Below the pieces are notes generated by a model. It was not told the origin of the DNA. It searched no databases and was given only the letters and a program-made list of their open reading frames with translations. A stretch of DNA of 64,000 nt from Malus domestica (lineage: Eukaryota > Streptophyta > Magnoliopsida > Rosales > Rosaceae), in the NCBI RefSeq assembly GCF_042453785.1, contig NC_091665.1:9805501-9869500 (forward strand), in the 5' to 3' direction. Position numbers and translations under genes: made by a program. Shown here piece by piece: positions 2,721-51,023 of the stretch. Positions within the stretch are counted from its first letter, which is position 1; each line of letters begins with the position of its first letter.

Positions 2721-4160
2721 TTATATTAAATACAATAAAACATATACTTCACTAAGATGTGGTACTTCTGGACCAAATATCAATTTATCTTTACCCTCAC
2801 AAAGATAAATGATCATTCTTAATGTCGACATTATTTGAGTATTTAACTTATAATCTTCAATCTATATGGTTCTTTAATATCATAAACATCATGGATAAGA
2901 TTCGTGTTGGCATATTGTTCGATCTGCAGTTCGAGACAATATTTCTCTCAACACTTTATATTCTTTCTAGACGCTTCGGGAGTTTCAATTTAATATCATC
3001 AACTCTTCAGGAGTTCTAATTTAATGTCATTGACTCTTGCAAGAGATTTTAGTATGTTGCAACAATATCATAATGATAGTACTCACTAAGGCAATTTATA
3101 CCATCAATTGGTATTTAGTACATATTTTATGCTTTACCCTTCCGGGGCTTACTTCAAACAATTTGAATCCTTCAAGGATTTTCTACACTTCATGACACAT
3201 TTTCCTTTGGAATTTATACAGAGAAACTTGCTCTCATGTATAATTGAGAGATTTACTTATGGAGATATGATGTAGGCGACTCACAACCCTTCGTATATAA
3301 TTCTACATTCATATGAACTCGTTTACAAGAGTATAATTTCAGGTTTCAATACCTTGTGTCATATCATGTGAGTGTATTTCACTGTATTACAAATGCCCAT
3401 ATGTAACCTCATTAGTTCAACATATTTTGGCTATTTGTATTGCATTCAAGTATATAGGTCTATTTTTCCACGTTCTTACAAAATTGTAATGGAATTGCCT
3501 TTCTCCATTTTGGCCAATAATTTTGTTGACGAAAAAGAATGGGACTCAATATCAACATAGCTCATTGATGAATTTAGTAGCTACTTATAAAAACCAAAAT
3601 TACCATTGATTATCATCAATTTGTGATCCCATATTCTCATGTGCATGCGAATGCATAAAAACTTTTCATTTCTTTTTATATCCATTGCCTCTTCAAGGGC
3701 ATTACATTGCCTCTTCCAGGATAGTCATAGTTTAGAGAATGCGAATCATAACCTCTTCTTGAGCATTATAGAGCTTGGAATTTAATCTCCACTTCCGGGA
3801 GTTGAGTCATTTGGAACCTATACGTCTATCATGCTTCATGCATGAGACATCAACATTCCCATGTCCACGGATTGTCCTTTCTGGGACGTATATCCATGCG
3901 GCGACTGTCATGCTTCTAGCAGGCAACAGTTATGCTTCGGGAATGCAATAGTTTAGTAGTGCCATATTCTTCCTCTTTCGGAAGACTGAATCTTTTTTAG
4001 TCTGAAGGTCTACCATGCTTCAGGCGTGCAACGGAGAAATCAATTGCTGCCTCATTATTTTTGTCCAACAAGGACATCAATTCTTGTAGGCACATTTGCA
4101 GCAAATATATATGATTTCATCACTTTCGTTGCATCATTAAATGCATCTGGCATTTGATTG
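2721..4160 (-). mobile_element. AT-rich remnant, probably part of a decayed Copia element
   Basis: There is no gene here. The DNA is AT-rich with recurring CTTCGGGA/CTTCCAGGA-type motifs (near 2970, 3710, 3795, 3935). Similar motifs recur beyond the younger LTR element at 8540-8760. That suggests the two flanks were one older minus-strand Copia-type element before the insertion. No protein motif is readable in this part. Confidence 0.4.
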
Positions 4161-4442
4161 TGTTTATACCATATTTAGGGCCTCCGTATTTAGACCTCGT
4201 ATAAATACTCGGAGGACTCAAATGTAATTATATAATAAATGGAGGGGCCTCTCATATTCAGAGTAAAGCTCTCAAGTTCTCTCTCCTTCACAATCCTCTC
4301 ACAAACAGAGAAATACAATATTAGTGTGGACGTAGCCCAAAAATTAGGGTGAACCACGATACATCTTGTGTTCTTTACTTTCTTGCAGTTTCACGGTCGG
4401 ATTTACGTTGTTCCAAAACCCCTCCGGTTTTGTGCATCAACA
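4161..4442 (+). repeat. 5' LTR
   Basis: This is the left 282-bp long terminal repeat of the element at 4161-7951, TG...CA bounded. It includes TATAAATACTCGG near 4200 as a likely TATA box and closely matches the right LTR. The similarity suggests a fairly recent insertion. Confidence 0.85.
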
Positions 4443-7669: not shown

Positions 7670-7951
7670 TGTTTATACCATACTTAGGGCCTCCGTATTT
7701 AGACCTCGTATAAATACTCAAAGGACTCAAATGTAATTATGTAATCAATGGAGGGGCCTCACATATTCATAGCAAAACTCTCAAGCTCTCTCTCCCTCAC
7801 AATCCTCTCACAAACAGAGAAATACAATATAAGTGTGGACGTAGCCCAAACATTGGGGTGAACCACGCTACATCTTGTGTTCTTTACTTTCTTGCAGATT
7901 CACGGTAGGATTTACATTGTTCTAAGACCCCTCCGGTTTTGTGCATCAACA
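7670..7951 (+). repeat. 3' LTR
   Basis: This is the right 282-bp LTR of the element at 4161-7951, the same length as the left LTR and differing at scattered positions. The following AATTG is a near-match to the GATTG that precedes the left LTR. Confidence 0.85.
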
Positions 7952-22385: not shown

Positions 22386-25300
22386 TTAGGCCGCCTTTTG
22401 TGAAATAATGGATCGTAATGCATCTCTCACATAAGAGTATTTGAACGAGAAACCCAACTCCTCGGCTCTAACTGGAAGCACCCTCTGCCCATCCAGAACC
22501 TGCAACGACCTTGTTATGTATCTCAGCAATATGAAATCAGGAAAGAGTTGAAAAGAAAATAAAGAAATTCTTACCACAGAAGCACCTTCTCCAAGGACTG
22601 CTTTCAGGGCAAAGTCCGGTACAGGCAGCCATGAGGGCCTGCCCAAGACATTTCCCAAATGCTCACACATTTCTGCAAATCGAACAGGGTTTGGTGCAGT
22701 TCCATTGATAACTCCTGAGATTTAGGTAAAAACTGTGTTCAATATGTTGAAAAGTTTCGAGAACCAGTGTCACACGACATTGTTGAGTGAACACATATCA
22801 TCATTAATTCGTTTATTGAAATTCTTAAAGAGTATTCGAACTATTTACAAGTGTAGTTATCTCCACGTACCAGCAAACTTTAGATGAAACCAATATCAAT
22901 CCTTTGGTTCTTTGTTTCACTTCATATCAGCAATAAGCAACGAATCTTTACCTTTATAAGATGGATTGGATAGGGCTTCATATATCAGGTTCACTATGTC
23001 GTCCAGATGAATCCAGGAAAACCTACACGATGTTGAAAAGGATCAATTATCCAAGATGTTGATCATAAATATCTAAAATGAAACTTAACTGACGATGTCA
23101 TATTGTCTGATTAGCTAAACCAGAGCAATCTTTGCTTTCAAAGTGGCAATTGGAAAGTCTTAGTAGTAAAACATTGACTGATACCCATCGGACAGAATTG
23201 AGGACAATACCATTGCTTTCCAGAGCCCAAGGGTCCTCCAGCAAACACCATAAAGAGAGGGATCATTTTAGCTGCAAACGCTCAAAGGTGTAAGCATGCG
23301 TGAGGCAGACTGAGATTATTAGTGTCATACGAACCACGGTTATAGATATGTACAATTTGTAACAAAATCGAGTGCCATTTTAAATGTTTTTTTGCTGGTA
23401 TCTAACGCAAGTCATGGCATAGAACCGAGCACAATGGCATTCTAGGATTGATATGGCCCATCCCACTTAGTGGGAAAAGGCTTTGTTGTTGTATATTTTT
23501 CAAACATGACATCAGAAATTGAAAGTTAGAGATAATTATGCATAGAACAGCCTGATACAATTGCGGGGTCATGCAAGCCTCAGTGCAACCAGATTGGTCA
23601 ATGTATAATCAAACATAAAGCAGAAAAATTGCAAACCAAAGTCAATTTTAGCAAGTCTAGTTAGTGAGCAAACATTGCAATTAAGGTTTCACAGTATAGA
23701 GCATACCTAAAGCTCCACCATCTTTACCAAGAACAACACCAATGCGAATGAGCGCTAGCCTAACATCCTTATTCACTTTGAGGGCAGTTCCTTCCCATTC
23801 TCTACAAACCTGAAAAGACTTACATGTTAGTTGAAGATCCTGAAAGGCTTAGATGCGAGTTAAAGATGAGGACAATTTTTTGCACAAACGAGAAGTTCCA
23901 ATAGTGATGATGTGATATTCCGCCATGGACTGGAAGCTCTGTGTTGGTGATAGAGTGTGTATTTAGCCGGACTGACAATACGTACAAAAGTCCATTCTAC
24001 AACCCATAATAACACTAGGCACCACGACTATGAGTTCTAAAAAGAAAACATAAACATAATTCATCTGAGCTGCAATAGCCCTTGGCCAGTGATCCTAAAA
24101 CTCGGAAACCGAGATTAAATATGATCAAAGTAATCAGGAATTCTTCTACCCATTCAGGTCGTACAGCACCATTGAAATTAGAAAGTTCAATGTTCCATTT
24201 AATTATTTCCATCATGTCATTTTTTTTTTTTTTTTTAAACTCCGCCGTGTAAGTTTATCTTACATTGCCGGTCCCAAGCCCGGATAAAGGAGGAGGGGGA
24301 GGGCGTCAGGTAGTCGACAGCCGGCACTCCATGATCACGTCGAATCCTTATGAAAATGAATCCAGAACGAAATCGCGCTAAAGCTAGGGCGTCACCCGTA
24401 AGTGGCGCGCTGTGTGGCCTGAGCACAGTGATAAGTGAGCAAGGGTCGCTGTATCTCCATCGGCACCCGGATGCAGTGTTAAATGAGCAAGGGGGCTATA
24501 GAAACTTCTTTTCGAACGACTCCACTCAAAGTTGTTTGGGAGCATATGCTCCTATCAACTTTACACGGGACACACAAAAGAAGTACTTTGATCCTATTAG
24601 ACGGGGAAGGGTGAAGAAGCTAGGACAGAAGGGTAGAGTTCAAGAGAGCAAAATGCGTTTAGGAACGTGGAATATAGGAACCTTGACGGGAAAATCTATG
24701 GAAGTAGTAGAAGTTATGGTAAGGAGAAGGATAAATATTATGTGCCTACAAGAAACTAAGTGGGTTGGTCGTACGGCAAAGGATCTAGAAAACTCAGGGT
24801 TTAAACTATTGTATTCGGGCACAAATAGAACGAGAAACGGTGTTGGCATCATCGTGGACAAGACCTTGACACAAGATGTTGTAGATGTCAAGAGGGTAGG
24901 AGATAGAATCATGGCAATCAAGATTGTAATAGGACAAGAACTTATCAATGTGATTAGTGCGTACGCACCTCAAGTAGGGTTGGATACGAGTTCGAAGGAG
25001 AAATTTTGGGAAGACCTTGGAGACTTGGTGCAAGGAATTGCTCAGACGGAGAAGTTATTTATAGGAGGAGATTTAAATGGACACGTGGGCAGGGAGACAG
25101 GCAACTATGGAGGTTTTCATGGTGGCCATGGTTTTGGGGAGAGAAACGAGGATGGGGAAGCTATCTTGGATTTTGCAATGGCATATGATCTCTTCTTAGC
25201 CAACACCTTCTTTAAGAAGAGAGAAGAACATGTAATCACCTACAAGAGTGGGTCGTCAAAAACACAAATAGATTTTCTTCTAATGAGGAAAGGGGATCGT

Positions 25301-28300
25301 ATAACTTGTAAGGATTGCAAAGTTATACCAGGAGAGAGCGTGGCTAATCAACATCGCTTGTTGGTGATGGATGTACATATCAAAAGAGTGAGAAAAAAGA
25401 ACAAGACTTGGAAGTGCCCAAGGACTAGATGGTGGAATCTAAAAGAAGAAAAACAAGCCATTTTCAAAGAGAAAGTAATCACCCAGTATGTGTGGGATAG
25501 AGAGGGGGAAGCTAACCAAATGTGGGATTCCATGGCTAGTTGTATCCGAAAAGTAGCAAAAAAGGTATTAGGAGAGTCCAAGGGCTTTGCCCCACACCAA
25601 AAGGAATCTTGGTGGTGGAATGAGGAGGTACAAGCAAAGGTGAAGGCTAAGAAGGAATGTTGTAAAGCCTTATACAAGGATAGGACCGATGAAAATGGTG
25701 AAAGGTATAGAAAAGCGAAGCAAGAGGCGAAGAAAGCTGTGAGAGAAGCTAAGTTAGCGGCTTATGACGATATGTATAAGCGACTAGATACCAAAGAAGG
25801 AGAGTTGGATATCTATAAACTAGCTAGAGCAAGGGCAAAGAAGACAAGGGACCTAAACCAAGTGAGGTGCATCAAGGATGAGGATGGAAAGGTTCTTGCT
25901 ACAGAGAACGCGGTTAAAGACAGATGGAAAGGTTATTTTCATAATCTTTTCAATGAAGGACATGAAATGAGTGCTTCTTTAGGGGAGTTGAGTAACTCAG
26001 AAGAGTGTAGAAACTACTCTTTTTATCGTAGAATCCGGAAGGAAGAAGTGGGTGTAGCTTTGAAGAAGATGAAGCATAGAAAAGCAGTAGGCCCAGACGA
26101 TATACCAATCGAAGTGTGGAAAGTTTTGGAAGAGACAGGTATAACATGGCTCACTGACCTTTTCAATAGGATTTTGAAAACGAAGAAGATGCCGAATGAG
26201 TGGCGAATGAGCACTTTAGTGCCTATCTACAAGAATAAGGACGATGTACAAAATTGCATGAACTATAGGGGTATTAAGCTAATGAGTCATACAATGAAGC
26301 TCTGGGAGAGAGTCATTGAGCATAGATTGAGGCAAGAGACACGGGTTTCGGACAACCAATTCGGGTTCATGCCAGGGCGCTCAACCATGGAGGCAATCTA
26401 TCTCTTACGAAGATTGATGGAAAGATATAGAGATGGGAAAAAGGATTTACACATGGTCTTTATAGATTTGGAAAAAGCGTATGATAGGGTCCCAAGAGAC
26501 ATTCTTTGGAGGATTTTAGAGAAGAAAGGAGTACGAGTAGCATATATCCAAGCTATACAGGATATGTATGAAAGAGCAAAGACTGCCGTAAGAACTCATG
26601 AAGGACAAACCGAAAGCTTTCCCATAACTGTAGGATTACATCAAGGCTCATCCTTAAGTCCTTACATTTTTGCGTTGGTAATGGATGAGTTAACAGGACA
26701 TATTCAAGGTGATATTCCTTGGTGTATGCTTTTCGCAGACGACATAGTGTTGATAGATGAAACTCAGGAAGGGGTAAATGCAAAGCTTAACCTTTGGAGA
26801 GAAGTGTTGGAATCTAAAGGTCTTCGCCTAAGCCGATCAAAGACAGAATATATGGAGTGCAAGTTCAGTGCAAATGGAGGCCAAAACGAGTTAGGGGTGA
26901 GGATCGGAGATCAAGAAATACCAAAGAGCGACCGTTTTCGCTACCTAGGATCTATCTTGCAAAAGAACAGAGAATTAGATGGAGATCTCAACCATAGAAT
27001 ACAAGCTGGATGGATGAAGTGGAAGAGTGCATCCGGCGTGTTGTGTGACCGCCGTATGCCACTGAAGCTCAAGGGAAAATTTTATAGGACGGCAATAAGG
27101 CCGGCGATGCTGTATGGCACAGAATGTTGGGCGGTGAAGCATCAACACGTACACAAAATGGGTGTAGCGGAGATGAGGATGCTTCGTTGGATGTGTGGGC
27201 ACACGAGAAAGGATAAGATTAGGAATGAGGATATCCGGGGTAAAGTAGGAGTAGCCGAAATTGAAGGAAAGATGAGAGAAAATCGGTTACGGTGGTTTGG
27301 ACATGTGCAAAGAAGGCCTACTGACGCTCCGATTAGAAGATGTGACTATGGGACAGAGGTTCAGGGCCGAAGGGGCAGAGGAAGACCTAGGAAAACTTTG
27401 GAAGAGACCCTAAGAAAAGACTTAGAGTACTTGGATCTAACGGAGGACATGACACAGGACAGAACACAATGGCGTTCTAAGATTCATATAGCCGATCCCA
27501 CTCAGTGACTTGGATTTTCCAAGTCTCTAACCAAGAAGTTTTCCTCACTCGGGAAATTAAGGGAACACTATCTCAACCTATATGCTCCACTCACAAAGCT
27601 TCAACATACAAGCTTCAACAAAAGAAAATTCAAAGAACTTTGCGAAGAAGGCTTTGGTGTATTTAACACAATACGTTGAAATGAAGGAAAGCTTATTTAT
27701 TGATATCCCCGATAAGTTACAAATATGTACATATACTTGAGTCAAAATAAACAAACAAGAGGAAGCCTTCACAAAGGTTGCTTAGGAGAAGTCTCAGCAG
27801 TCGGTAGAGCCCCAGAAAGAGAAGGCACCGGAGGGGGATCATTCGGAGTCTCAGTACTGGACAAAACCCTAGAAGGAGGAGGCATCAGAGGTTGATCATT
27901 TGGAGATTCATTACGCGGTACAGCCCCAGAAGACGAAGGCAATAAATGCCTTTGGAACAAACCCACAAATCTCTGATGATCAAGTAAAACCTGACCATCA
28001 GATTCCTTCATCTGGTCAAGCTTCCTCTTCATGTTTGTAGCATAGTCATGTGCGAGCCGGTGCAACTGTTTATTCTCATGCTTGAGCCCTCTAATCTCCT
28101 GTTTGAGACTCATCACTTCAGCCGCCAATGATTCAACTTGGCGGGTTCGAGCAAATAGGCGTTGGGCCATATTAGACACAGAACCTGCACACTGAACACT
28201 GAGAGCCAGAGAATCCTTAACAGCCAACTCATCAGACCGTTTGGAAAGTAGTCTGTTATCTTTGGGAGTGAGAAGGTTCCTGGCCACTACCGCAGCGGTC

Positions 28301-31300
28301 ATATCATTCTTCATCACGGAATCCCCAACGGTAAGAGGACCAGTAGGGGAGACGAAGGATGGGCGCCATATGTTGTCTGGAGAAGGCGGGGCTGCCTCTT
28401 CAACAAGGTTCAAGTCAAAACGACGGTCGGAGGGGCCAGACATTTTCAAAGGGTTGAAGAGAGAAGAGGTCGGACAAATCAAGATCTTAGAAGTGCAAGA
28501 ATTGAGCTTCTACTGGTGGATATTCAAGTGTGCTTTGGAACTTAATGTCAGCCTCTATAAAAATCTGCACTCAACGAAGCTTCGGAAATCGAAGAGGCGC
28601 CTGCTCAGAAATCGAAGAGGCGTTTGCTTTCTCAAAAGCTGGGCTGTTCAGAGACCACGAGGGTCGATCTCAGAAATCGAAGAGGCGTTTGCTTTCTCAA
28701 AAGTTGGGCTGCTCAAAGACCACGAAGGCCGATCTCAGAAATCGAAGAGGCTTGCTTTCTCAAAAGCTGGGCTGCTCAGAGACCACGAGGGCCGATCTCA
28801 GAAATCAAAGAGGCACCTATTTTTCCAGCCTTGTCAGCACCTGTCACACGCACACTCAGCTTTGCGGAAATTATGGGCATTCTGTCGAAGATTTCTGGCG
28901 AAGAGAAAGCACATGAATCGTACTGTTCAATCACCCACTTCCCACACGCAACAGTAGCTCATGGGTACCACAGATAACTTTGCCAAAGTTCTCTGACAAA
29001 GTTGAGACACGTGAAGCTTGCAGCTCCCACTACATCGCTCTGACCAAGAAGGGTAAAAGAATTGCAAAGAAACAACACTAACAAAGTTTAGACACATAAA
29101 TTTTGAAGGTCTAGCTACCATATTATTACCCACAAGGGTAAAGGAACAGTACCACTGCTGGATAATTGGAATGTCCCGGTGTGTCAACCTCTGTGCTTCG
29201 TGGCAAGGTAGACTAGCAAACATGCCTAACCTTTACTCACATTCGAGAAAACACTCCCAACAAGATTGCTTGCCCCAAAATCGAAGAGGCACCGCCCTCC
29301 GAATCTCGAGAGCCAGACTCCCAACATGATTACTTTCTCAAAAATCGAAGAGAGGGTAAAGGAACAGTACCACTGCTGGATAATTGGAAAGTCCCTGTGT
29401 GTCAACCTTTGTGCTTCGTGGCAAGGTAGACTAGCAAACATGCCCAACCTTTACTCACATTCGAGAAAACACTGCCAACAAGATTGCTTGCTCCAAAATC
29501 GAAGAGGCACCGCCTTCCGAATCTCAAGAGCCAAACTCCCAACATGATTACTTTCTCAAAAATCGAAGAGAGGGTAAAGGAACAGTACCACTACTGGATA
29601 ATTGGAAAGTCCCTGTGTGTCAACCTCTGTGCTTCGTGGCAAGGTAGACTAGCAAACATGCCCAACCTTTACTCACATTCGAGAAAACACTCCCAACAAG
29701 ATTGCTTGCTCCAAAATCGAAGAGGCACCGTCCTCCGAATCTCGAGAGCCAGACTCCCAACATGATTACTTTCTAAAAAATCGAAGAGACAACGCTCTCC
29801 GAATCTTGAGAGCCAGACTCCCAACATGATTACTTTCTAAAAAATCGAAGAGACAACGCTCTCCGAATCTTGAGAGCCAGACCCCCAGCAGGATTGCTTT
29901 CTCAAAAATCGAAGAGGCATCGTTCTCCGAATCTCGAGAGCCAAATCCCCGACAGGATTGCTTGTTCGAAAACCGAAGAGGCACCACTTTCCCAACTTCA
30001 AGAGCTGGATCTCTTTGGATAAAGCTTGTCTGTAATCTTCACACGCAACATCAGCTTTCCAGATACCACAGACCACTTTTTCAAAGTGCTCTGACAGAGT
30101 TAAAACGTGTGAAGCTGGCAGCTCCCACTACCGTGCTATAACCAAGCAGGGTAAAGGAATAGCATTATTACTTGATGTTAGGGAGACTCCTATATATGTC
30201 GACCTCCATCCCTAACGGACAGGCAGACCTGCAAAAATGCTCAACCCTTTCTCTTATCTGAGAGGGCACTCCCAACGAAGCCTTTCGAAATTTTCAGCTT
30301 TCTTTCCCCCCGATAATACCTCTGTAAACAAGCTATACTAGAGCAAGAATATCTCATATCATCAGGGTTAAAAGCAAGAGTATCCCATATCATGCTTTTT
30401 CCCTGTCTTTTCCTTTGGCCTTGTTCTTACCTGCAAGTAGACCTGGCAAACGGGTCGTGTCTGTCGTGTTCGTGTCGTTTTCGTGTAACACCTGTTATCT
30501 TAACGGGTCGTGTCGTGTCACACCTGTTATCTTAACGGGTCCTTAACAGGTCGGGTCACTTTACCCAACAGGTAAAGTGACCCGACCCGTTATGACCCGT
30601 TAAGAAAAATATATTTTTTTCTTAAATTTGCACATACCACACATTACCACATAAATATTACTTCAAAACATTAAAACATATTTGTCATTTAAGTACTACA
30701 TCTACACTCGAAAATAAGAGCCTAATATTTTGTGGTATCCACTTGTGTAAATATTTTAAATTGACGATCGAATTCATTCATTGTATTCGTATAGAGTCAA
30801 CAAGTGTAGTTGTAAAAAATCATCAAAATCGGAGTTAAAATAACCGTTAAATCGTGGTTTTTTGTTTTATAACCGTCGAAAAGCTTTGTCTCATTACTTG
30901 ATCTCTGAATGTTTGTTTTTTGTGATTTTTGGCGTATGCGATCTCGAAGCATATACAAACAAGTTTGACGGTTGGATCGTTGAAATTAGTTTCATAGAAT
31001 TCGTATCCCATCAAAACGATAGATTCACTAACACTTAGAGTTTATTTATACTTTCATTAAGTATAAAATAAGATTTTGTGGTATCCACTTGTGAAAATAT
31101 TTTAAATTGGCGATCGAATTCATTCATTGTATTCGTATAGGGTCAACAAGTGTACTTGTAAAAAATCATCAAAATCGAAGTTAAAATAACCGTTAAATCG
31201 TGATTTTTTGTTTTATAACCGTCGAAAGGTTTTGTCTCATTACTTGATCTCTGAATGTTTGTTTTTTGTGATTTTTGGCGTATGCGATCTCGAAGCATAT

Positions 31301-34300
31301 ACAAACAAGTTTGACGGTTGGATCGTTGAAATTAGTTTCATAGAATTCGTATCCCATCAAAATGATAGATTCACTAACAATTAGAGTTTATTTATACTTT
31401 CATTAAATATAACATAAGATTTTGTGGTATCCACTTGTGTAAATATTTTAGATTGACGATCGAATTCATTCATTGTATTCGTATAGGGTCAAAAAGTGTA
31501 CTTGTAAAAAATAATCAAAATCGAAGTTAAAATAACCGTTAAATCGTGATTTTTTGTTTTATAACCGTCAAAAAGTTTTGTGTCATTACTTGATCTCTGA
31601 ATGTGCGTTTTTTGTGATTTTTGGCGTATGCGATCTCGAAGCATATACAAACAAGTTTGACGGTTTGATCGTTGAAATTAGTTTCATAGAATTTGTATCC
31701 AATCAAAACGATAGATTCACTAACAATTAGAGTTTATTTATACTTTTATTAAGTATAAAATAAGATTTTGTGGTATCCACTTGTGTAAATATTTTAAATT
31801 GACGATCGAATTCATTCATTGTATTCGTATAGGGTCAACAAGTGTACTTGTAAAAAATTATCAAAATCGAAGTTAAAATAACCGTTAAATCGTGATTTTT
31901 TGTTTTATAACCGTCGAAAAGTTTTGTCTCATTACTTGATCTCTGAATGTTTGTTTTTTGTGATTTTTGGCGTATGCGATCTCGAAGCATATACAAACAA
32001 GATTGATGGTTGGATCGTTGAAATTAGTTTCATAGAATTCGTATCCCATCAAAATGATAGATTCACTAACACTTAGAGTTTATTTATACTTTCATTAAGT
32101 ATAACATAAGATTTTGTGGTATCCACTTGTGTAAATATTTTAAATTGACGATCGAATTCATTCATTGTATTCGTATGGGGTCAAAAAGTGTACTTGTAAA
32201 AAATCAACAAAATCGAAGTTAAAATAACCGTTAAATCGTGATTTTTTGTTTTATCACCGTCGAAAAGTTTTGTCTCATTACTTGATATTTGAATGTTTGT
32301 TTTGTGATTTTTGGCATATGCGATCTCGAAGCATATACAAACAAGTTTGACGGTTTGATCGTTGAAATTAGTTTCGTGTATCCCATCAAGTTCAATGGTG
32401 TGTGTGTATATATATATATATATTTATTATGTAGATTTAAATCTATTTATTTTGTACGTATAATTATTATAGTTTTTTTTAGGGGTATAAAATTTAATTT
32501 AAAATTTAATATATATATATATATATATAATTATTATATTTAATATTTTGGGGGTATAATTATTATAGCATATATAATTATTATAGTTAATTTAATATAT
32601 ATATATATATAATTATAGTTTTAAACTTTTTAGGGGTATAAAATTGTTAAATTATTATATATAATTATTATAGTATTTTTTAGGGTTATAAAATTAGTAA
32701 ATTAATATTCTGCTTATCGTGTATCGTGTTACCTACGTGTATACCCGAACCAACCCGTTATCTTAACAGGTGCTTATCGGGTTACCCGAAAATACCTGAT
32801 TCGTTATCGTGTCGACTCGAACACCTGTTAATTTCGGGTCGTGTCGTGTCGGGTTATCGGGTCGTGTCAGGAATTGCCAGGCCTACCTGCAAGACAAGGA
32901 GAAAGAGAGCAATCAGTCAGCACTTGGAATCAAGCTTCCAGCCAGGAACTGACTGCCTGGAAACCCTTACCTGATTACTTACCTGGCATTGCTCTCGAGT
33001 ACTCATCTTCAACATCTTATGCTTCCAGGGAAGATACCGCATCTGCTTGAGGAACAGATAGGGCAAGTGAGAAGGATACAAGGAAGCATGTGGAGACAAG
33101 CGTAACAGCACACGTACCGATACATCCACTACTCTGTCAAAAGCAAAAGTATCCCATATCAGCAGGGTCGAACGTACTCTAGATTTGATGGACTTGTTTT
33201 GACCCTCAAATTCTTCAGTCGGCCTTATACTCTGGAGGAAACCAGAAAACCCTCCAGCCCAGTTCAAGAATAAGCCTGTGGAAAGTTACTTCTTCAAAAG
33301 CAAAAGTATCCCATATCATCTCTCCTCATTTTTCTTCTCTTTATCCTTCATGCTGCCTGCAAGATAGGGAGAATGTGAACAATCAGCCGGAGCTCTGATT
33401 GCTTACCTTGTCTGTCACCTCTTTCAGCAGATCCCCTAGCTCGGCGACTTGGGGGACTCCTACTACATGGTTTGTATCGCGCTTGACCAAGCATGAAACT
33501 ACAAGTAAGCTTCAAGTGAAATTGATACATTACCTTGTGCATCTCCACCAGTTACAGATACCACCCCTGGATGGAGGAAGAGTACTTCCAGAGAAGATGC
33601 CACATCTACCTATGAGACAGATAAGGCAAGTCAAGACGATACCACACTCCGGTACTTAGAAGTTTCGTGGCTACGAGATCATTCTCCCACAATATTTCAT
33701 AATGTCATTTGTACTAAATCATTCACTTGTACTCACTAAAGGAGAGCTTGAACCTATGTACTTGTGTAAACCCTTCACAATTAATGAGAACTCCTCTATT
33801 CCGTGGACGTAGCCAATCTGGGTGAACCACGTACATCTTGTGTTTGCTTTCCTATCTCTATCCATTTAAATACTTATCCACACTAATGACCGGAGCAATC
33901 TAGCGAAGATTACAAAAAGTGACCGTTTTCGCTACCTAGGATCTATCTTGCAAGAGAACGGAGAATTAGATGGAGATCTCAACCATAGAATACAAGCTGG
34001 ATGGATGAAGTGTAAGAGTGCATCCGGCGTGTTGTGTGACCGTCGTAGGCCACTGAAGCTCAAGGGAAAATTTTATAGGACGGCAATAAGGCCAACAATG
34101 TTGTATGGCACAGAATGTTGGGCGGTGAAGCATCAACGTACACAAAATGGGTGTAGCGGAGATGAGGATGCTTCGTGGGATGTATGGGCACACGAGAAAG
34201 GATAAGATTGGGAATGAGGATATCCGAGGTAAAGTAGGAGTAGCCAAATTGAAGGAAATATGAGAGAAAATCGGTTCCGGTGGTTTGGACATGTGCAAAG

Positions 34301-37300
34301 AAGGCCTACTGACGCTCCGGTTCGAAAATGTGACTACGGGACAGAGGTTCAGGGCCGAAGGGGTAGAGGAAGACCTAGGAAAACTTTGGAAGAGACCCTA
34401 AGAAAAGACTTGAGTACTTGGATCTAACGGAGGACATGACACAAAACCGAGCGCAATGGCGTTCTAGGATTCATATAGCCGACCCCACTTAGTGGGAAAA
34501 GGCTTTGTTGTTGTTGTTGTTGTTGTTGTATGTCATTTTTTTTAAATAAAATTAAAAAGTTACTCTCACATCCAAAGGACATGCCAAGAAGCTATTATTT
34601 CAATTTCCTGGAAATTCAAACCTTATTCAGAAAATTAGTCATCCGTAACCACAAAGCCTAAAGGAGGTTAAGGTAGCATCCCCAAAAGGGTATCAGGGTG
34701 GTAATAAGTTTGATCCAACTACAATGGCTATGTTGTCGATCAATCTGACTATGCATTCAACATCTATTTAGTATGACAGTCATTAGTCAGATAATTAAAT
34801 AGTCTGAAAACATACTGGATAATGGAAATCTTAGAAGTTTTAAGCATCTTTTACCACATCAATTAGGCTTTCATATATTCTTTTTGGAACTGATTATGCA
34901 TAAAACATACATAATAAAATAATTCCATTGCTTACCTCAGCTAAGTAATCATTCCCTGATGGACTTTGCTCATCAAATATTTGTGTCTCACTAGTACCTG
35001 ACCATAATGAATAAAAAATTAAACAAGATCCAAAAATGAAAATGAGCTTAGTAACTTTAAAGAGGCTCCTTAAATTTGGATTATGAGTCTCGAGTAACGG
35101 AAAATCATATGCCAGCTATGGGGAGATAATGAGTGTTGCCTCAGCACAATGACTATATAATAGTTACTAAATGGTCTTCTAACTCACTCCGACATCAGAA
35201 TGTATCACTTAAGATATTTATCAATTAACTAGCACGCTCCAATTCCATGGGGTATTGAAATGCTCAGTCAGAATCTAATGATCCAGAAGAATAAATTCCG
35301 CATAAATGTCTACAATGTTTTACAGATGAATACTAGCACAGCAAGAAAAATAACTGAAACTTCATGCAAACCAAGCAATAGGATGATGCAGTGACTTAAT
35401 AGATAAAAAGCATGAGACTGAACAGACCGTAGTAACCGACAGCTGTTGCGCTAACCAAGACTGTAGGTCGAACTGCATCTGGTAAATCGTTTATTAAATC
35501 TATGACCTTCACAACCAGTTGAAAGGTCAAATCAGTTTTTGGTTAAATAATACTCTTTTTATTAAGAAAAGGAGCAAAAAGTGATTTGTATTTTGACAGC
35601 CGCATGAACTAATCAGTGTAAGAAACACTACTAACCTTCGATGTGACTCTAATCCTGCTAGTCTTTATCTCTTTCTTTATCTACAGTCCAATTAGAAGTT
35701 AGTAACTTCTAGGCATACATACATATGTTCACTTCTGATATTAAAACACCATGAATCACATACTGTATGGCCTTAGCCAGCAATGTTCTGTCAATTCATG
35801 GCAGTTTTACTGCTATAAAGTTTAAATATTCACCACTGGTACCAACCTCAGGAGACCATCTTGTGCTTATGGGCAGTCCACCCAAATTTACGACACCAGT
35901 TGAACCTTGAATGCTGTCTTTCCACTGTGGCTCCTCTGCAATCATGATTCCTGGAAAATCCTTGACTACAGATGGCAGGGAAAATTTCAAGTGTTAACCC
36001 AATACAGAAGACTAACTATCTCAATATTACCCCGGACAATAAACCAGCAGTTAACAATGATTCAAGTACTGGGGTTATTTCAATCTGTATACGAATGTAA
36101 CAACTTATATTCGGCAATTTTTTTATATTTCATAATAAACAAATAGAATCAGTTTTTTTGTTAAGTTACCATGTCCCCAAAAGCTTAACTATTAGGAACC
36201 AAGCCCAACAACGTATATCAAGAATAATTTAACATGAAACACTAACACTCCTCCTCACATGACGTTCACACAACAACTGAACCAAATGAGGCCTTACAGG
36301 AGCACAATAGAAATTAACAAAAAACTGGGGTATCAATACTAGAACCGATGGCTTGAGGAACAACCTCTCTCCAAACCCTAACCCTATCAAGCATCAAACA
36401 ACAACACACACTAAAAATTTGTGTAAAGTATACATAAAATAATTCTTCCTTTGGTTTTTGAGTTTATTCTTTGGGATGAAGGAGGGGTTGTTGGACAGAT
36501 ATCCAACTGTTTAACCCATTCTAATTTTTTTCTTTCTAGAAGTTGATTATCACAAGAGGTCGCACTTGGTGCGATGGCAAGTGCCTTCGCCCATGAGTTG
36601 TAGGTCTCGGGTTCGAGACTTGGGAGCAGCCTCTCCATAAAATGGGGGTAAGGCTAGCCGACATGCACCTCTCCCAGACCCTGCGTAAAGCGGGAGCCTT
36701 GTGCACTGGGTACGATTAGTTAGATTAGTTTAGAAGTTGATTATCCTTCCAAGTGTTGGAAAAGTAAACACTAGCTGCTTATATATCATTGCTTTTGATG
36801 TAATGAGGAAGTGACTGGTAGAAAGCACTGGTGGAAGAATAGAGCAGCTCCACTTTCAAATGATTCACATGAATTTGATTTTCTTGGTCCTCAGAAAATC
36901 TAACTGAGTCTAATTTAACTTGGATTCATAGAATCATGTGCACAAACTTACTATTCCTAGATTTCAAAAGATTTGAGAAAATAGCCAACAAGTGTACATT
37001 ACCTTCTTACCCGGAAAAATTAACTCAGCCTTTGATCTGGACCGTGTCAAGACATGCACACTATGATTATCTGCATTACAAATTGGATCACCACAACCTT
37101 GAAATCATTTGTTTTGGTCGTAAATGCACCTTGTTATGCATAAATACTGAAAGATATGCATGTCCCTTCTTGCTAGCTCCAGTAAAAAATAAGGACCAAA
37201 TCAATAGTCATTGGGAAATAATCAAATAACATAAACAGGCATTAATCCGAGGTGGATGCACGAAAATAAAATATAAACACAACAGAATGGAAACACTGCG

Positions 37301-44799: not shown

Positions 44800-44800
44800 A

Positions 44801-45610
44801 CATATTCAAGATGATATTCCTTGGTGTATGCTTTTCGCAGACGATATAGTGTTGATAGATGAAACTCAGGAAGGGGTAAATGCAAAGCTTAACCTTTGGA
44901 GAGAAGTGTTGGAATCTAAAGGTCTTCGCCTAAGCCGATCAAAGACAGAATATATGGAGTGCAAGTTCAGTGCAAATGGAGGCCAAAACGAGTTAGGGGT
45001 GAGGATCGGAGATCAAGAAATACCAAAGAGCGACCGTTTTCGTTACCTAGGATCTATCTTGCAAAAGAACGGAGAATTAGATGGAGATCTCAACCATAGA
45101 ATACAAGCTGGATGGATGAAGTGGAAAAGTGCATCCGGCGTGTTGTGTGACCGCCGTATGCCACTGAAGCTCAAGGGAAAATTTTATAGGACAACAATAA
45201 GGCCGGCGATGCTGTATGGCACAGAATGTTGGGCGGTGAAACATCAACACATACACAAAATGGGTGTAGCGGAGATGAGGATGCTTCGTTGGATGTGTGG
45301 GCACACGAGAAAGGATAAGATTAGGAATGAGGATATCCGGGGTAAAGTAGGAGTAGCCGAAATTGAAGGAAAGATGAGAGAAAATCGGTTACAGTGGTTT
45401 GGACATGTGCAAAGAAGGCCTACTGACGCTCCGATTAGAAGATGCGACTATGGTACAGAGGTTCAGGGCCGAAGGGGTAGAGGAAGACCTAGGAAAACTT
45501 TGGAAGAGACTCTAAGAAAAGACTTAGAGTACTTGGATCTAACGAAGGACATGACACAGGATCGAGCACAATGGCGTTCTAAGATTCATATAGCCGATCC
45601 CACTCAGTGA
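44801..45610 (+). pseudogene. 3' third of RTE LINE ORF
   Basis: The frame is open from the FADD box to ADPTQ-stop and is nearly identical to residues about 784-1052 of copy A, with a few substitutions (for example LQWFGH for LRWFGH). Endonuclease and most of the reverse transcriptase are absent. A chance ATG at 44795 is in frame, but no function is expected. Confidence 0.85.
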
Positions 45611-45870
45611 CTTGGATTCTCCAAGTCTCCAACCGAGAAGTTTTCCTCACTCGGGAAATTAAGGGAACACTACCCCAACCTACATGCTCCACTCAGAAAG
45701 CTTCAACATACAAGCTTCAACAAAAGAAAATTCAAAGAACTTAGCGAAGAAGGCTTTGGTGTATTTAACACAATACGTTGAAATGAAGGAAAGCTTATTT
45801 ATTGATATCCCCGATAAGCTACAAATATGTACATATACATGAGTCAAAATAAACAAACAAGAGGGAGCCT

Positions 45871-46545
45871 TCACAAAGGTTGCTTAGGAGAAGTCTCAGC
45901 AGTCGGTAGAGCCCCAGAAAGAGAAGGCATCAGAGGGGGATCATTTGGAGCCTCAGTACTGGACAGAACCCTAGAAGGAGGAGGCATCAGAGGTTGATCA
46001 TTTGGAGCTTCATTACGCGGTACAGCCCCAGAAGACGAAGGCAATAAATGCCTTTGGAACAAACCCACAAATCTCTGATGATCAAGTAAAACCTGACCAT
46101 CAGTTTCCTTCATCTGGTCAAGCTTCCTCTTCATGTTTGTAGCATAGTCATGTGCGAGCCGGTGCAACTGTTTATTCTCATGCTTGAGCCCTCTAATCTC
46201 CTGTTTGAGACTCATCACTTCAGTCGCCAATGATTCAACTTGGCGGGTTCGAGCAAATAGGCGTTGGGCCATATTAGACACAGAACCTGCACACTGAACA
46301 CTGAGAGCCAGCGAATCCTTAACAGCTAACTCATCAGACCGTTTGGAAAGTAGTCTGTTATCTTTGGGAGTGAGAAGGTTCCTGGCCACCACCGCAGCGG
46401 TCATATCATTCTTCATCACGGAATCCCCAACGGTAAGAGGACCAGTAGGGGAGACGAAGGATGGGCGCCATATGTTGTCTGGAGAAGGCGGGGCAGCCTC
46501 TTCAACAAGGTTCAAGTCAAAACGACGGTCGGAGGGGCCAGACAT
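45871..46545 (-). CDS. Module antisense ORF, coiled-coil protein (copy B)
   Basis: An intact 224-aa ORF of identical length to copy A (27769-28443). It differs at only about six residues (for example LATEV for LAAEV, MKETDG for MKESDG), most of them in the C-terminal proline/serine repeats. Two intact copies plus the recognisable ruined relative at 2007 argue that the ORF was selected in the source element. It may be expressed from the minus strand of the module. Function unknown. Confidence 0.6.
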   Translation of the reverse strand: MSGPSDRRFDLNLVEEAAPPSPDNIWRPSFVSPTGPLTVGDSVMKNDMTAAVVARNLLTPKDNRLLSKRSDELAVKDSLALSVQCAGSVSNMAQRLFARTRQVESLATEVMSLKQEIRGLKHENKQLHRLAHDYATNMKRKLDQMKETDGQVLLDHQRFVGLFQRHLLPSSSGAVPRNEAPNDQPLMPPPSRVLSSTEAPNDPPLMPSLSGALPTAETSPKQPL

Positions 46546-46849
46546 TTTCAAAGGTGTTGAAGAGAGAAGAGGTCGGACAAATCAAGATCTTAGAAGTGCA
46601 AGAATGAAGCTTCTACTGGTGGAGATTCAAGTGTGCTTTGGAACTTAATGCCAGCCCCTATAAAAATCTGCACTCGACGGAGCTTCAGAAATCGAAGAGG
46701 CGCCTGCTCAGAAATCGAAGAGGCGTTTGCTTTCTCAAAAGCTGGGCTGCTTAGAGATCACGAGGGTTGATCTCAGAAATCGAAGAGGCGTTTGCTTTCT
46801 CAAAAGTTGGGCTGCTCAAAGACCACGAAGGCCGATCTCAGAAATCGAA

Positions 46850-48680
46850 GAGGCGCTCGCTTTCTCAAAAGCTGGGCTCCCCAGAGACCACGAGGGCCGA
46901 TCTCAGAAATCGAAGAGGCACCTACTTTTCCAGCCTTGTCAGCACCTGTCACACGCACACTCAGCTTTGCGGAAATTATGGGCATTCTGTCGAAGACTTC
47001 TGGGGAAGTAGAAAACACATGAATCTTACTGTTCAATCACCCACTTCCCACACGCAACAATAGCTCATGGGTACCACAGATAACTTTGCCAAAGTTCTCT
47101 GCCAAAGTTGAGCACGTGAAGCTTGCAGCTCCCACTACATCGCTCTGACCAAGAAGGGTAAAAGAATAGCAAAGAAACAGCACTAACAAAGTTTAGACCC
47201 ATAAATTTTGAAGGTCTAGCTACCATATTATTACCCGCAAGGGTAAAGGAACAGTACCACTGCTGGATAATTGGAAAGTCCCTGTGTGTCAACCTCTGTG
47301 CTTCGTGGCAAGGTAGACTAGCAAACATGCCCAACCTTACTCACATTCGAGAAAACACTCCCAATAAGATTGCTTGCTCCAAAATCGAAGAGGCACCGTC
47401 CTCCGAATCTCGAGAGCCAGACTCCCAACATGACTACTTTATTAAAAATCGAAGAGAGGGTAAAGGAACAGTACCATTGCTGGATAATTGGAAAGTCCAT
47501 GTGTGTCAACCTCTGTGCTTCGTGGCAAGGTAGACTAGCAAACATGCCCAACCTTTACTCACATTCGAGAAAACACTCCCAACAAGATTGCTTGCTCCAA
47601 AATCGAAGAGGCACCGCCCTCCGAATCTCGAGAGCCAGACTCCCAACATGATTACTTTCTCAAAAATCGAAGAGACACTGCTCCCCGAATCTTCGAGAGC
47701 CAGACCCCCAGCATGATTGCTTTCTTAAAAATCGATGAGGCATCGTTCTCCGAATCAATCGAAGAGGCACTCGCTTTCTCAAAAGCTGGGCTGCTCAGAG
47801 ACCACGAGGGCCGATCTCAGAAATCGAAGAGGCGCCTACTTTTCTAGCCTTGTCAGCACCTGTCACACGCACACTCAGCTTTGCAGAAATTATGGGCATT
47901 CTGTCGAAGACTTCTGGTGAAGTAGAAAGCACATGAATCTTACTGTTCAATTACCCACTTCCCACACGCAACAATAGCTCATGGGTACCACAGATAACTT
48001 TGCCAAAGTTCTCTGCCAAAGTTGAGTACGTGAAGCTTGCAGCTCCCACTACATCGCTCTGACCAAGAAAGGTAAAAGAATAGCAAAGAAACAGCACTAA
48101 CAAAGTTTAGACACATAAATTTTGAAGGTCTAGCTACCATATTATTACCCACAAGGGTAAAGGAACAGTACCACTACTGGATAATTGGAAAGTCCCTGTG
48201 TGTCAACCTCTGTGCTTCGTGGCAAGGTAGACTAGCAGACATGCCCAACCTTTACTCACATTCGAGAAAACACTCCCAACAAGATTGCTTGCTCCAAAAT
48301 CGAAGAGGCACCATCCTCCGAATCTCGAGAGCCAGACTCCCAACATGACTACTTTCTCAAAATCGAAGAGAGGGTAAAGGAACAGTACCATTGCTGGATA
48401 ATTGGAAAGTCCCTGTGTGTCAACCTTTGTGCTTCGTGGCAAGGTAGACTAGCAAACATGCCCAACCTTTACTCACATTCGAGACAACACTCCCAACAAG
48501 ATTGCTTGCTCCAAAATCGAAGAGGCACCGCCCTCCGAATCTCGAGAGCCAGACTCCCAACATGATTACTTCCTCAAAAATCGAAGAGACACTGCTCTCC
48601 GAATCTCGAGAGCCAGACCCCCAGCATGATTGCTTTCTCAAAAATCGAAGAGGCATCGTTCTCCGAATCTCGAGAGCCAG
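46850..48680 (+). repeat. ~915-bp tandem duplication in copy B repeat zone
   Basis: The block with CCTTGTCAGCACCTGTCACA, ATTATGGGCATTCTGTCGAAG and two 217-bp units occurs twice. The first starts near 46850 and the second near 47765; matching positions are about 915 bp apart. Copy A has only one such block. Unequal exchange between the short CGAAGAGGC repeats would explain it. Confidence 0.8.
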
Positions 48681-50074
48681 ATACCACAGACCACTTTTTC
48701 AAAGTGCTCTGACAGAGTTAAAACATGTGAAACTGACAGCTCCCACTACCGTGCTATGACCAAGCAGGGTAAAGGAATAGCATTACTACTTGTTGTTAGG
48801 GAGACTCCTATATATGTCGACCTCCATCCCCAATGGACAGGCAGACCTGCAAAAATGCTCAACCCTTCATCATATCTGAGAGGGCACTCCCAACGAAGCC
48901 TTTCGAAATATTCAGCTTTCTTTCCCCCCGATAATACCTCTGCAAACAAGCTATACTAGAGCAAGAATATCTCATATCATCAGGGTTAAAAGCAAGAGTA
49001 TCCCATATCATGCTTTTTCCCTGTCTTTTCCTTTGGCCTTATTTTTACCTGCAAGACAAGGAGAAAGAGAGCAATCAGTCAGCACTTGGAATCAAGCTTC
49101 CAGCCAGGAACTGACTGCCTGGAACCCCTTACCTGATTACTTACCTGGCATTGCTCTCGAGTACTCATCTTCAACATCTTATGTTTCCAGGGAAGATTCC
49201 GCATCTGCTTGAGGAACAGATAGGGCAAGTGCGAAGGATACAAGGAAGCATGTGGAGACAAGCGTAACAGCACACGTGCCGATACATCCATTACTCTGTC
49301 AAAAGCAAAAGTATCCCATATCAGCAGGGTGGAACGTACTCTAGATTTGATGGACTTGTTTTGACCCTCAAATTCTTCAGTCGGCCTTATACTCTGGAGG
49401 AAACCAGAAAACCCTCCAGCTCAGTTCAAGAATAAGCCTGTGGAAAGTTACTTCTTCAAAAGCAAAAGTATTTCATATCATCTCTTCTCATTTTTCTTCT
49501 CTTTATCCTTCATGCTGTTGCAAGATGGGGAGAAGGTGAACAATCAGTCGGAGCTCTGATTGCTTACCTTGTCTGTCACCTCTTTCAGCAGACCCCCTAG
49601 CTCGGCGACTTGGGGGACTCCTACTACATGGTTTGTATCGCGCTTGACCAAGCCTGAAACTACAAGTAAGCTTCAAGTGAAATTGATACATTACCTTGTG
49701 CATCTCCACCAGTTAAAGATACCACCCCTGGATGGAGGAAAAGTACTTCCAGAGAAGATGCCACATCTACCTATGAGACAGATAAGGCAAGTCAAGACGA
49801 CACCACACTCCGATATTTAGAAGTTTCGTGATTACGAGATCATTCTCCCACAATATTTCCTAATGTCATTTGTACTAAATCATTCACTTGTACTCACTAA
49901 AGGAGAGCTTGAACCTATGTACTTGTGTAAACCCTTCACAATTAATGAGAACTCTTCTATTCCGTGGACGTAGCCAATCTGGGTGAACCACGTACATCTT
50001 GTGTTTGCTTTCCTATCTCTATCCATTTATATACTTATCCACACTAATGACCGGAGCAATCTAGCGAAGATCAC

Positions 50075-50693
50075 AAAAAGCGACCGTTTTCGCTACCTAG
50101 GATCTATCTTGCAAGAGAACGGAGAATTAGATGGAGATCTCAACCATAGAATACGAGCTGGATGGATGAAGTGTAAGAGTGCATCCGGCGTGTTGTGTGA
50201 CCGTCGTAGGCCACTGAAGCTCAAGAGAAAATTTTATAAGACGGCAATAAGGCCAGCGATGTTGTATGGCACAGAATGTTGGGCGGTGAAGCATCAACAC
50301 GTACACAAAATGGGTGTAGCGGAGATGAGGATGCTTCGTGAGATGTGTGGGCACACGAGAAAGGATAAGATTGGGAATGAGGATATCCGAGGTAAAGTAG
50401 GAGTAGCCGAAATTGTAGGAAAGATGAGAGAAAATCGGCTCCGGTGATTTGGACATGTGCAAAGAAGGCCGACTGACGCTCCGGTTCGAAGATGTGACTA
50501 CGGGACAGAGGTTCAGGGCCGAAGGGGTAGAGGAAGACCTAGGAAAACTTTGGAAGAGACTCTAAGAAAAGACTTAGAGTACTTGGATCTAACGGAGGAC
50601 ATGACACAAAACCGAGCGCAATGGCGTTCTAGGATTCATATAGCCGACCCCACTTAGTGGGAAAAGGCTTTGTTGTTGTTGTTGTTGTTGTTG
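50075..50693 (+). mobile_element. Second LINE 3' end with (TTG)n tail, copy B
   Basis: It re-enters the LINE at SDRFRYLG just as in copy A, preceded by the same GATCACAAAAAG join. A TGA replaces the Trp codon of RLRWFGH at 50447, so it is non-coding. It ends CCCACTTAGTGGGAAAAGGC plus TTG units. Confidence 0.8.
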
Positions 50694-51023
50694 TTTAGTC
50701 AATTTGCTAGATAAATGTTGCTAATTGATTTATAATGCTAATTTTGATAGAAAGCTAGCGACTTCATGCTTGTCCCCAAATCATTTTGACTCTTGCTAGA
50801 CATTGAGGGCAAACCTTATAGGTATCTTTGGTTTTCGGAGTACCAATTGTGGATTGCCAGATGGTTCATAAATTGGTAAGGAAATAAATGATAGGGCATG
50901 ATCATAGAGCATCTGATACCAAAAACCTTTCCATCTTTGTAGCTGATGCCCTGGAGCCATAATCGCAGCTTAAATCGGAAAATATAATGTTATTTACACA
51001 TGGTGTGGTGTATTATAGCAGTG
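50694..51023. other. Intergenic
   Basis: 3' flank of the membrane-protein gene; nothing recognised. Confidence 0.6.

What the first reader, a model, noticed from the sequence alone, without database searches (positions are those of the whole stretch)
24237..34529. A LINE fused to an LTR-retroelement module behaves as one retrotransposon
Seen directly: the LINE reads to its last codon, jumps into a foreign module of about 4 kb, and then a second LINE 3' end with (TTG)n follows. The 14-bp repeat ATGTCATTTTTTTT flanks the whole 10.3 kb, not the inner parts. Known: RTE LINEs recognise their own 3' end. Inference: the second 3' end gives a hybrid RNA the recognition signal, so LINE enzymes insert LINE plus passenger together. 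I know of no described plant element of this design.
Basis: partly seen in the sequence, partly recalled or inferred. Interest (0 to 1): 0.88.

Follow-up and report, generated by a model that had tools for sequence, protein, structure and literature searches.

The report
Apple LINE carrying an LTR-element passenger
In an apple-type genome a jumping gene of the LINE kind has fused with a 4-kb piece of an unrelated jumping gene, and the fusion copies itself to new places as one unit, which shows how new composite transposons can arise in plants.

Summary
The window holds a second, 5'-truncated copy with both junctions (44800-50695). A genome search scored 40 matches, all spanning the LINE/module junction (capped list). 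All 22 copies read in full have one order: RTE-type LINE, ~4-kb module, LINE 3' end, (TTG)n. Nine of 10 full-length copies carry their own 14-20 bp target duplication; among 12 truncated ones 4 do. No two of 33 3' flanks share a 14-mer. Subfamily mutations in all three parts travel together. So segmental duplication and assembly artefact are refuted.

The module is the region behind pol up to near the 3' LTR end of a Retand-like gypsy element, which also supplies the LINE's new stop codon. Full-length copies start at the presumed cut site of a twister-like ribozyme.

Best reading: a double template switch founded a LINE lineage that keeps its passenger. Chimeric LINE products and SVA-type composites are known; I found no description of an ORF-bearing plant LINE family of this design. 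Total copy number remains uncounted.

The parts
24214..24227 (.). 5' target-site duplication ATGTCATTTTTTTT of copy 1
24233..24301 (+). twister-P1-like ribozyme at the LINE 5' end; the element itself starts at about 24238 (AACTCCGCC)
   Evidence: Rfam RF03160, 56.3 bits (gathering score 67.2), E 5.1e-12; 10 of 10 full-length copies start AACTC
24238..27502 (+). LINE A: RTE-type LINE without its 3' tail
   Evidence: edge at CCACT from comparison with gypsy and plain LINE ends
24350..27508 (+). LINE ORF from first ATG (frame open from 24335); endonuclease and RT; last codon CAG and stop TGA read as in the gypsy relative
27498..27507 (+). junction 1: CCACTCAGTG, also in the gypsy relative; plain LINE ends read CCACTTAGTG
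27503..33916 (+). passenger module, Retand-like gypsy DNA, sense to the LINE, ending 58 nt before the LTR end of relatives
27772..28443 (-). 224-codon antisense ORF in the module
28604..30008 (+). tandem-repeat part of the module (64/65- and 218-bp units)
30438..32884 (.). later guest element (2447 bp) with 9-bp duplication ACCTGCAAG, short inverted ends and a 346-bp x5 tandem array; not part of the mobile unit
33913..33916 (+). junction 2: CAAA shared by gypsy relatives and LINE
33913..34529 (+). LINE B: second LINE 3' end with (TTG)n
34530..34543 (.). 3' target-site duplication of copy 1
44800..45610 (+). copy 2: LINE A, 5'-truncated
45611..50073 (+). copy 2: module (no guest element)
50074..50695 (+). 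copy 2: LINE B with (TTG)n; no target duplication found

Best explanation
A chimeric RTE-type LINE family. SHOWN: a three-part unit (LINE A with ORF, ~4-kb gypsy passenger, LINE B 3' end with (TTG)n) has inserted as one piece at many separate sites with the marks of target-primed reverse transcription, and its three parts are inherited together through successive rounds. INFERRED working: the RNA is cut to its 5' end by the twister-like ribozyme, the LINE protein is made from it, binds the second 3' end, and copies B, passenger and A from the (TTG)n end. INFERRED origin: one reverse transcription started on a LINE RNA, switched at CAAA to the RNA of a Retand-like gypsy element, and switched back to a LINE RNA at CCACT within a stretch alike at 9 of 10 bases. 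The product had an open ORF with a gypsy-supplied stop and a complete LINE 3' end, so the accident could go on copying itself.
For: Junction 1 in 40 of 40 scored matches; same three parts and junctions in 22 of 22 copies read and a B end with tail at the expected place in 12 of 19 sampled by end windows. Own target duplications in 9 of 10 full-length and 4 of 12 truncated copies and in 2 of 3 sampled. Various 5' truncation points, constant (TTG)n 3' end. Unlike flanks. Congruent shared variants in A, M and B, 0 of 300 permutations reaching the observed value for each pair of parts. Inherited ORF changes 12 synonymous to 10 non-synonymous against 42 to 103 for private ones, Fisher p 0.026; inherited variants at third positions 14 of 24, p 0.010. 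Junction microhomologies and gypsy-derived stop. 5' ends at the presumed ribozyme cut.
Against: One of 10 full-length and 8 of 12 truncated copies show no clear target duplication. In 7 of 19 sampled matches no LINE B end was in the short window read. Per-copy private substitution rates of A and M do not correlate (rho 0.16, p 0.52), though those of M and B do (rho 0.68, p 0.0006). Shared-to-private ratio in A does not differ significantly from part B (p 0.16) or from the non-repeat module (p 0.24). The exact gypsy and LINE parents were not found: the junction 1 comparison rests on one 88% relative. Template switching is inferred from microhomology alone. No RNA or protein evidence.
Confidence: 0.78

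Rival explanations
1. Same mobile unit, but founded by a DNA rearrangement (microhomology-mediated joining or recombination between LINE and gypsy copies) and only then spread as a LINE.
For: Microhomology at both junctions fits DNA joining as well; both partners are abundant repeats in this genome (first-look candidates 2096 and 4306; these are not copy counts).
Against: The passenger is sense to the gypsy and LINE RNAs and ends inside the LTR rather than at it, as a copy of RNA could; this is weak, since orientation alone has even odds.
Confidence: 0.3
2. The composite is non-autonomous: protein from plain LINEs moves it in trans and its own ORF is along for the ride.
For: A shared 3' end is thought to suffice for SINEs moved by LINEs (PMC3747384, passages). 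The ORF is broken in 5 of 10 full-length copies.
Against: Synonymous and third-position bias of inherited ORF variants. The ten proteins ending in the fusion form DPTQ include all nine Malus-named ones among the 120 listed; no plain-form Malus ORF is in that list, which ranks by likeness to the composite ORF.
Confidence: 0.2
3. Read-through 3' transduction: a LINE lying upstream of a gypsy fragment and of another LINE 3' end was transcribed through both, and that RNA founded the family.
For: 3' transduction is well known for L1 and reported for plant retrotransposons (PMC13317346, passages).
Against: LINE A lacks its own 3' tail at junction 1, which a normally inserted LINE would have; an extra deletion at microhomology is needed.
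Confidence: 0.1
4. Ordinary nesting spread by segmental duplication, or an assembly artefact.
For: None found beyond the repeat-rich setting.
Against: Unlike flanks and own target duplications; recurrence in 40 scored matches.
Confidence: 0.02

Closest known systems
Plant RTE LINEs (RTE-1_Mad of Malus, RTE-1_Stu of potato; named in PMC9033089 and PMC3747384, passages)
   Same: One ORF with endonuclease and RT, (TTG)n tail, twister-like 5' end (PMC7761336 passage)
   Different: Here a ~4-kb gypsy module and a second LINE 3' end follow the ORF, and the stop codon is changed. The Repbase entry was not held, so whether RTE-1_Mad already contains part of this unit is untested
Retand lineage of Ty3/gypsy elements (PMC11963269, abstract and passages)
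   Same: Antisense ORF and tandem repeats between pol and the 3' LTR
   Different: Only that region is carried, without gag, pol or primer site; no TRP28 domain seen
LINE template-switch chimeras, e.g. Magnaporthe WEIRD/Mg-SINE/MGL (PMC2104539, abstract)
   Same: Two or three RNAs fused in one insertion with target duplication
   Different: The abstract describes 33 bipartite elements and one tripartite one as retropseudogenes; here one fusion became a family with an ORF
SVA, LAVA and related VNTR composites (PMC4432496, PMC7353768; search listing only)
   Same: Composite unit moved by LINE machinery
   Different: Those are non-autonomous; this unit carries a LINE ORF
R2/R1 hybrid SIDEs of Drosophila (PMC3414825, abstract)
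   Same: 5' ribozyme of one element joined to the 3' end of another LINE, which gives recognition
   Different: Short, no ORF, no LTR-element passenger
HODOR of apple (PMC13334179, PMC6901071; passages)
   Same: High-copy retroelement of apple
   Different: Described as a 9.2-9.7 kb LTR element enriched at centromeres; its sequence was not compared here

Membership tests
RTE-clade LINE | ORF with endonuclease and RT | tested here: met
   PF03372 and PF00078 above cut-off
RTE-clade LINE | (TTG)n 3' end, stated for RTE LINEs of flowering plants in PMC3747384 | tested here: met
   Window copies and 20 of 20 fetched copies (L026 with a T-to-A variant at the tail start)
RTE-clade LINE | RT tree placement in the RTE clade | not tested
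   No tree was built; nearest proteins are plant and fish RTs
RTE-clade LINE | Twister-like ribozyme at the 5' end (PMC7761336 passage) | tested here: inconclusive
   E 5.1e-12 over the whole model but 56.3 bits against a gathering score of 67.2; activity not testable here
Unit moved by target-primed reverse transcription | Own target duplications, variable 5' truncation, constant 3' tail | tested here: met
   9 of 10 full-length, 4 of 12 truncated copies with duplications; 12 truncation points
[quoted passage not shown]
   224 codons, intact in 20 of 22 copies
Retand gypsy lineage (source of the module) | Tandem repeats in that region (about half of elements in PMC11963269) | tested here: met
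Retand gypsy lineage (source of the module) | TRP28 (PF04195) in the antisense ORF, 97% of clusters in PMC11963269 | tested here: not met
   No PF04195 among 13 Pfam matches at E up to 10; hence only called Retand-like
Retand gypsy lineage (source of the module) | RT tree placement | not tested
   The module carries no RT; the relatives' pol was not analysed
SVA-type non-autonomous composite | No LINE ORF of its own | tested here: not met
   Frame open in 5 of 10 full-length copies
HODOR | Match to the 9,716-bp sequence KX869746 | not tested
   Sequence not held; described as a centromere-enriched LTR element

The most novel reading that the evidence does not exclude
The passenger is more than cargo: a self-sufficient LINE lineage has taken over the gypsy region behind pol, with its antisense protein and LTR sequences, as a working part, and has displaced plain RTE LINEs as the main active RTE source in apple. 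The antisense frame is intact in 20 of 22 copies; its inherited variation (1.04% of sites) is lower than in the non-repeat rest of the module (1.88%), but not significantly so (p 0.12). All nine Malus-named LINE proteins in the 120 listed hits end in the fusion form.
Probability: 0.15. Interest if true: 0.88.

Novelty: new variant of a known kind. Interest (0 to 1): 0.74.

Why it matters
It shows a LINE gaining 4 kb of an unrelated retroelement and going on to multiply with it, rather than leaving a dead chimera. It offers a natural test of 3'-end recognition in plant RTE LINEs, because one unit holds a tail-less and a complete LINE 3' region. It also gives a route by which LTR-element sequences can be spread by LINE enzymes, and warns that annotation will tend to split such units into a LINE and a gypsy fragment.

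Tried and rejected
Considered and rejected: nesting plus segmental duplication (unlike flanks); assembly artefact (recurrence); splicing as the cause of junction 1 (the gypsy relative reads continuously through CCACTCAGTGACTTGG); HODOR (different by description only).

Led nowhere: junction pattern in viral contigs, 0 matches. Genome-wide counting by exact pattern did not complete. Selection on the antisense ORF not significant. A contrast of shared and private variants between A and B, and between A and the non-repeat module, not significant. The borders of the 3' LTR inside the module were not determined. Seven literature searches showed no plant LINE of this design (open-licence PMC papers only); three others were on HODOR, Retand and twister. 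Passages of PMC10085705 had no bearing. Scripts stopped with errors part-way; tables come from the mended runs 28 and 33, and the junction letters of L009-L018 from the part that one search printed.
Full report
WHAT IS THERE. The region was read directly. A LINE starts at about 24238; its frame is open from 24335 to 27508 (1057 codons, first ATG 24350), with endonuclease and reverse transcriptase domains. At 27498-27507 it passes into unrelated DNA. At 33913 a second LINE 3' end begins, 94% identical to 26922-27507, and runs to (TTG)n ending at 34529. ATGTCATTTTTTTT lies on both sides of the whole (24214-24227 and 34530-34543). Inside the module a 2447-bp element (30438-32884) is a later guest with its own 9-bp duplication and short inverted ends, so the original unit is about 7.8 kb.

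A SECOND COPY IN THE WINDOW. Self-comparison shows another copy at 44800-50695, 96.9% identical over aligned stretches of 2878 and 1661 bases. It has both junctions, is 5'-truncated inside the LINE ORF and ends in (TTG)n; its flanks are unrelated to those of copy 1. It lacks the guest element and so shows the guest's empty site. No target duplication was found for it.

THE GENOME. The window lies in an unnamed 651-Mb, 19-contig assembly. The nearest named proteins to the LINE ORF and to the antisense ORF are from Malus, so the host is apple or a close relative. A 401-base query across junction 1 gave 40 scored matches, the window copy among them, 39 covering the query from end to end and one lacking a base at each end, at 99-100%. 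Of the other 39, I read 20 in full and 19 through short end windows. With the two window copies, 22 of 22 copies read in full have LINE A, module and LINE B in the same order with the same junctions. Of the 19 sampled, 12 show the B end with its tail at the expected place (one with a shortened tail start) and 7 do not within the window read; 6 show the full-length 5' start at the expected place.

INDEPENDENT INSERTION. Of 10 full-length copies, 9 have exact target duplications of 14-20 bp, each of a different sequence; L014 has none. Of 12 truncated copies, L013 (16 bp), L025 (18 bp), L027 (18 bp, then one mismatch, set off by a 16-nt filler) and L012 (11 bp, mostly TTG-like and so weak) have one; L016, L019, L020, L021, L024, L026, L028 and copy 2 show none. 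Three sampled copies showed both ends; two have duplications of 16 and 18 bp, one none. Among 33 3' flanks (80 bp) and 22 5' flanks (100 bp) no pair shares a 14-mer. Truncation points all lie in LINE A because the query required junction 1; copies truncated further in would not have been found.

ONE HEREDITARY UNIT. Variants shared by subsets of copies define the same groups in the three parts: {L009, W1} at 7, 14 and 2 sites in A, module and B; {L022, L028} at 4, 15 and 5. The members of each pair lie on different contigs. In 300 label permutations none reached the observed congruence for any of the three pairs of parts. LINE, passenger and second 3' end have therefore been copied together through more than one round. 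Private substitutions average 0.32% (A), 0.41% (module) and 0.41% (B), which means a young burst; with plant rates recalled from memory (about 4e-9 to 1.3e-8 per site and year) roughly 0.3 to 1 million years. The copies were picked by likeness to the window copy, so the family may reach further back; copy 2 is clearly older (2.0-2.6% private in B and module). Per-copy private rates agree between module and B (rho 0.68, p 0.0006) but not between A and module (rho 0.16, p 0.52; 18 copies).

THE ORF AND SELECTION. The frame is open in 5 of 10 full-length copies. Private codon changes are 42 synonymous to 103 non-synonymous (10 of them stops), as expected of dead copies; inherited changes are 12 to 10 (Fisher p 0.026). 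Inherited variants fall at third positions in 14 of 24 cases (p 0.010). The homologous non-coding part B shows no such bias (8:4:7). But the ratio of shared to private variants in A does not differ significantly from B (p 0.16) or from the non-repeat module (p 0.24). So use of the composite's own ORF is supported, modestly.

WHAT THE PASSENGER IS. A relative of the module lies on the minus strand at about 2756-677 of the window; its LTR-like end is followed by a primer-site-like and a gag-like stretch, by my reading. Other copies end ...CAACA followed by TTTGGCGCCGTTTGTGGGAAC. The module stops about 58 nt before that end. The 10 kb left of the window (L033) matches the first 963 bases of the module at 88%; about 2.5 kb upstream of that match is an integrase-like frame, by my reading and without a domain search. 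So the module runs from behind pol into the 3' LTR; where the LTR begins inside it was not determined. An antisense ORF and tandem repeats in this region are marks of Retand elements (PMC11963269, abstract and passages). The usual TRP28 domain was not detected, so I call it Retand-like. The 224-codon antisense frame is intact in 20 of 22 copies. Close relatives abound in Malus: cluster P0002, 98% identical, has 2492 members over an unknown number of assemblies; whether those lie in composites or in gypsy elements is not known.

THE JUNCTIONS. At junction 1 the gypsy relative reads CACGACCACTCAGTGACTTGG. Plain LINE ends read CCCACTTAGTGGGAAAAGGC, as in part B and in a plain LINE remnant at 23400-23497. 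The composite reads CCCACTCAGTGACTTGG in 22 of 22 copies (one base differs further on in copy 2). The crossover thus lies in CCACT, within a stretch alike at 9 of 10 bases, and the last codon CAG and stop TGA match the gypsy. In agreement, of 120 listed homologous proteins 18 end in DPT, the plain form, and 10 in DPTQ, the fusion form; those ten are nine named Malus domestica (two of them forms of one locus) and one unnamed. At junction 2 the gypsy reads TCACAAAC and the LINE A homologue ACCAAAGAG, sharing CAAA, which alone could be chance.

THE 5' END. Rfam's type-P1 twister model matches 24233-24301 at 56.3 bits, below its gathering score of 67.2 but at E 5.1e-12 over the whole model. All 10 full-length copies begin at AACTC. 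From memory, twister cuts just before the AA of UAAcgCcGCC, so the DNA start equals the presumed cut site. A review states that truncated, active twisters are conserved at the 5' ends of RTE elements, citing work in preparation (PMC7761336, passage).

HOW IT MOST LIKELY WORKS. Shown: unit insertion with LINE hallmarks, repeated and heritable. From established knowledge: plant RTEs end in (TTG)n or (TTGATG)n, and a tobacco SINE sharing an RTE 3' end is thought to use its machinery (PMC3747384, passages). Inferred: the second 3' end is what the LINE protein binds. Inferred origin: two template switches at microhomology in one reverse transcription, as reported for other LINEs (PMC2104539, abstract; template jumps of R2, PMC3414825, abstract). 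DNA joining at the same microhomologies is the main rival for the origin and would not change what the unit does now.

NOVELTY. Chimeric LINE products, 3' transduction and non-autonomous composites are known. What I did not find, in seven searches of the held open library, is a plant LINE that keeps an ORF, carries a multi-kilobase LTR-element passenger and a second 3' end, and forms a family. I rate this a new variant of a known kind.

Noticed in passing
24233-24301: Twister-P1-like ribozyme at the LINE 5' end; the element's first bases coincide with the presumed cut site.
   Followed up: partly
30438-32884: Guest element of 2447 bp with 9-bp duplication, short inverted ends (about AGRCCTGGCAA) and five 346-bp tandem units; looks Mutator-like by its 9-bp duplication (recalled trait), present in copy 1 only of the 22 copies.
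   Followed up: partly
27772-28443: Antisense 224-codon ORF kept intact in 20 of 22 composite copies; abundant in Malus protein sets, no Pfam family.
   Followed up: partly
L009:500-560: A 17-bp tandem duplication of the LINE 5' start (AACTCCGCCGTGTAAGT) inside the target duplication; the sampled copy at C1:7.5M has a similar start.
   Followed up: no
23400-23497: Remnant of a plain LINE 3' end of the same family, without module, with TAG stop and a short (TTG)n.
   Followed up: partly
L010, L011 and most other fetched copies, near the module end: Most copies have about 90 extra bases near the module's 3' end that L009, L026 and the window copies lack; {L009, L026, W1, W2} also group by shared variants in module and B.
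   Followed up: partly
4161-4442 and 7670-7951: Direct repeat of 282 bp, 93% identical, perhaps ends of another LTR element.
   Followed up: no
1-2756 minus strand, continuing into L033: Retand-like gypsy DNA with LTR-like end, primer-site-like and gag-like stretches; the aORF-like region stands both before and after it, so elements may be overlapped or in tandem.
   Followed up: partly
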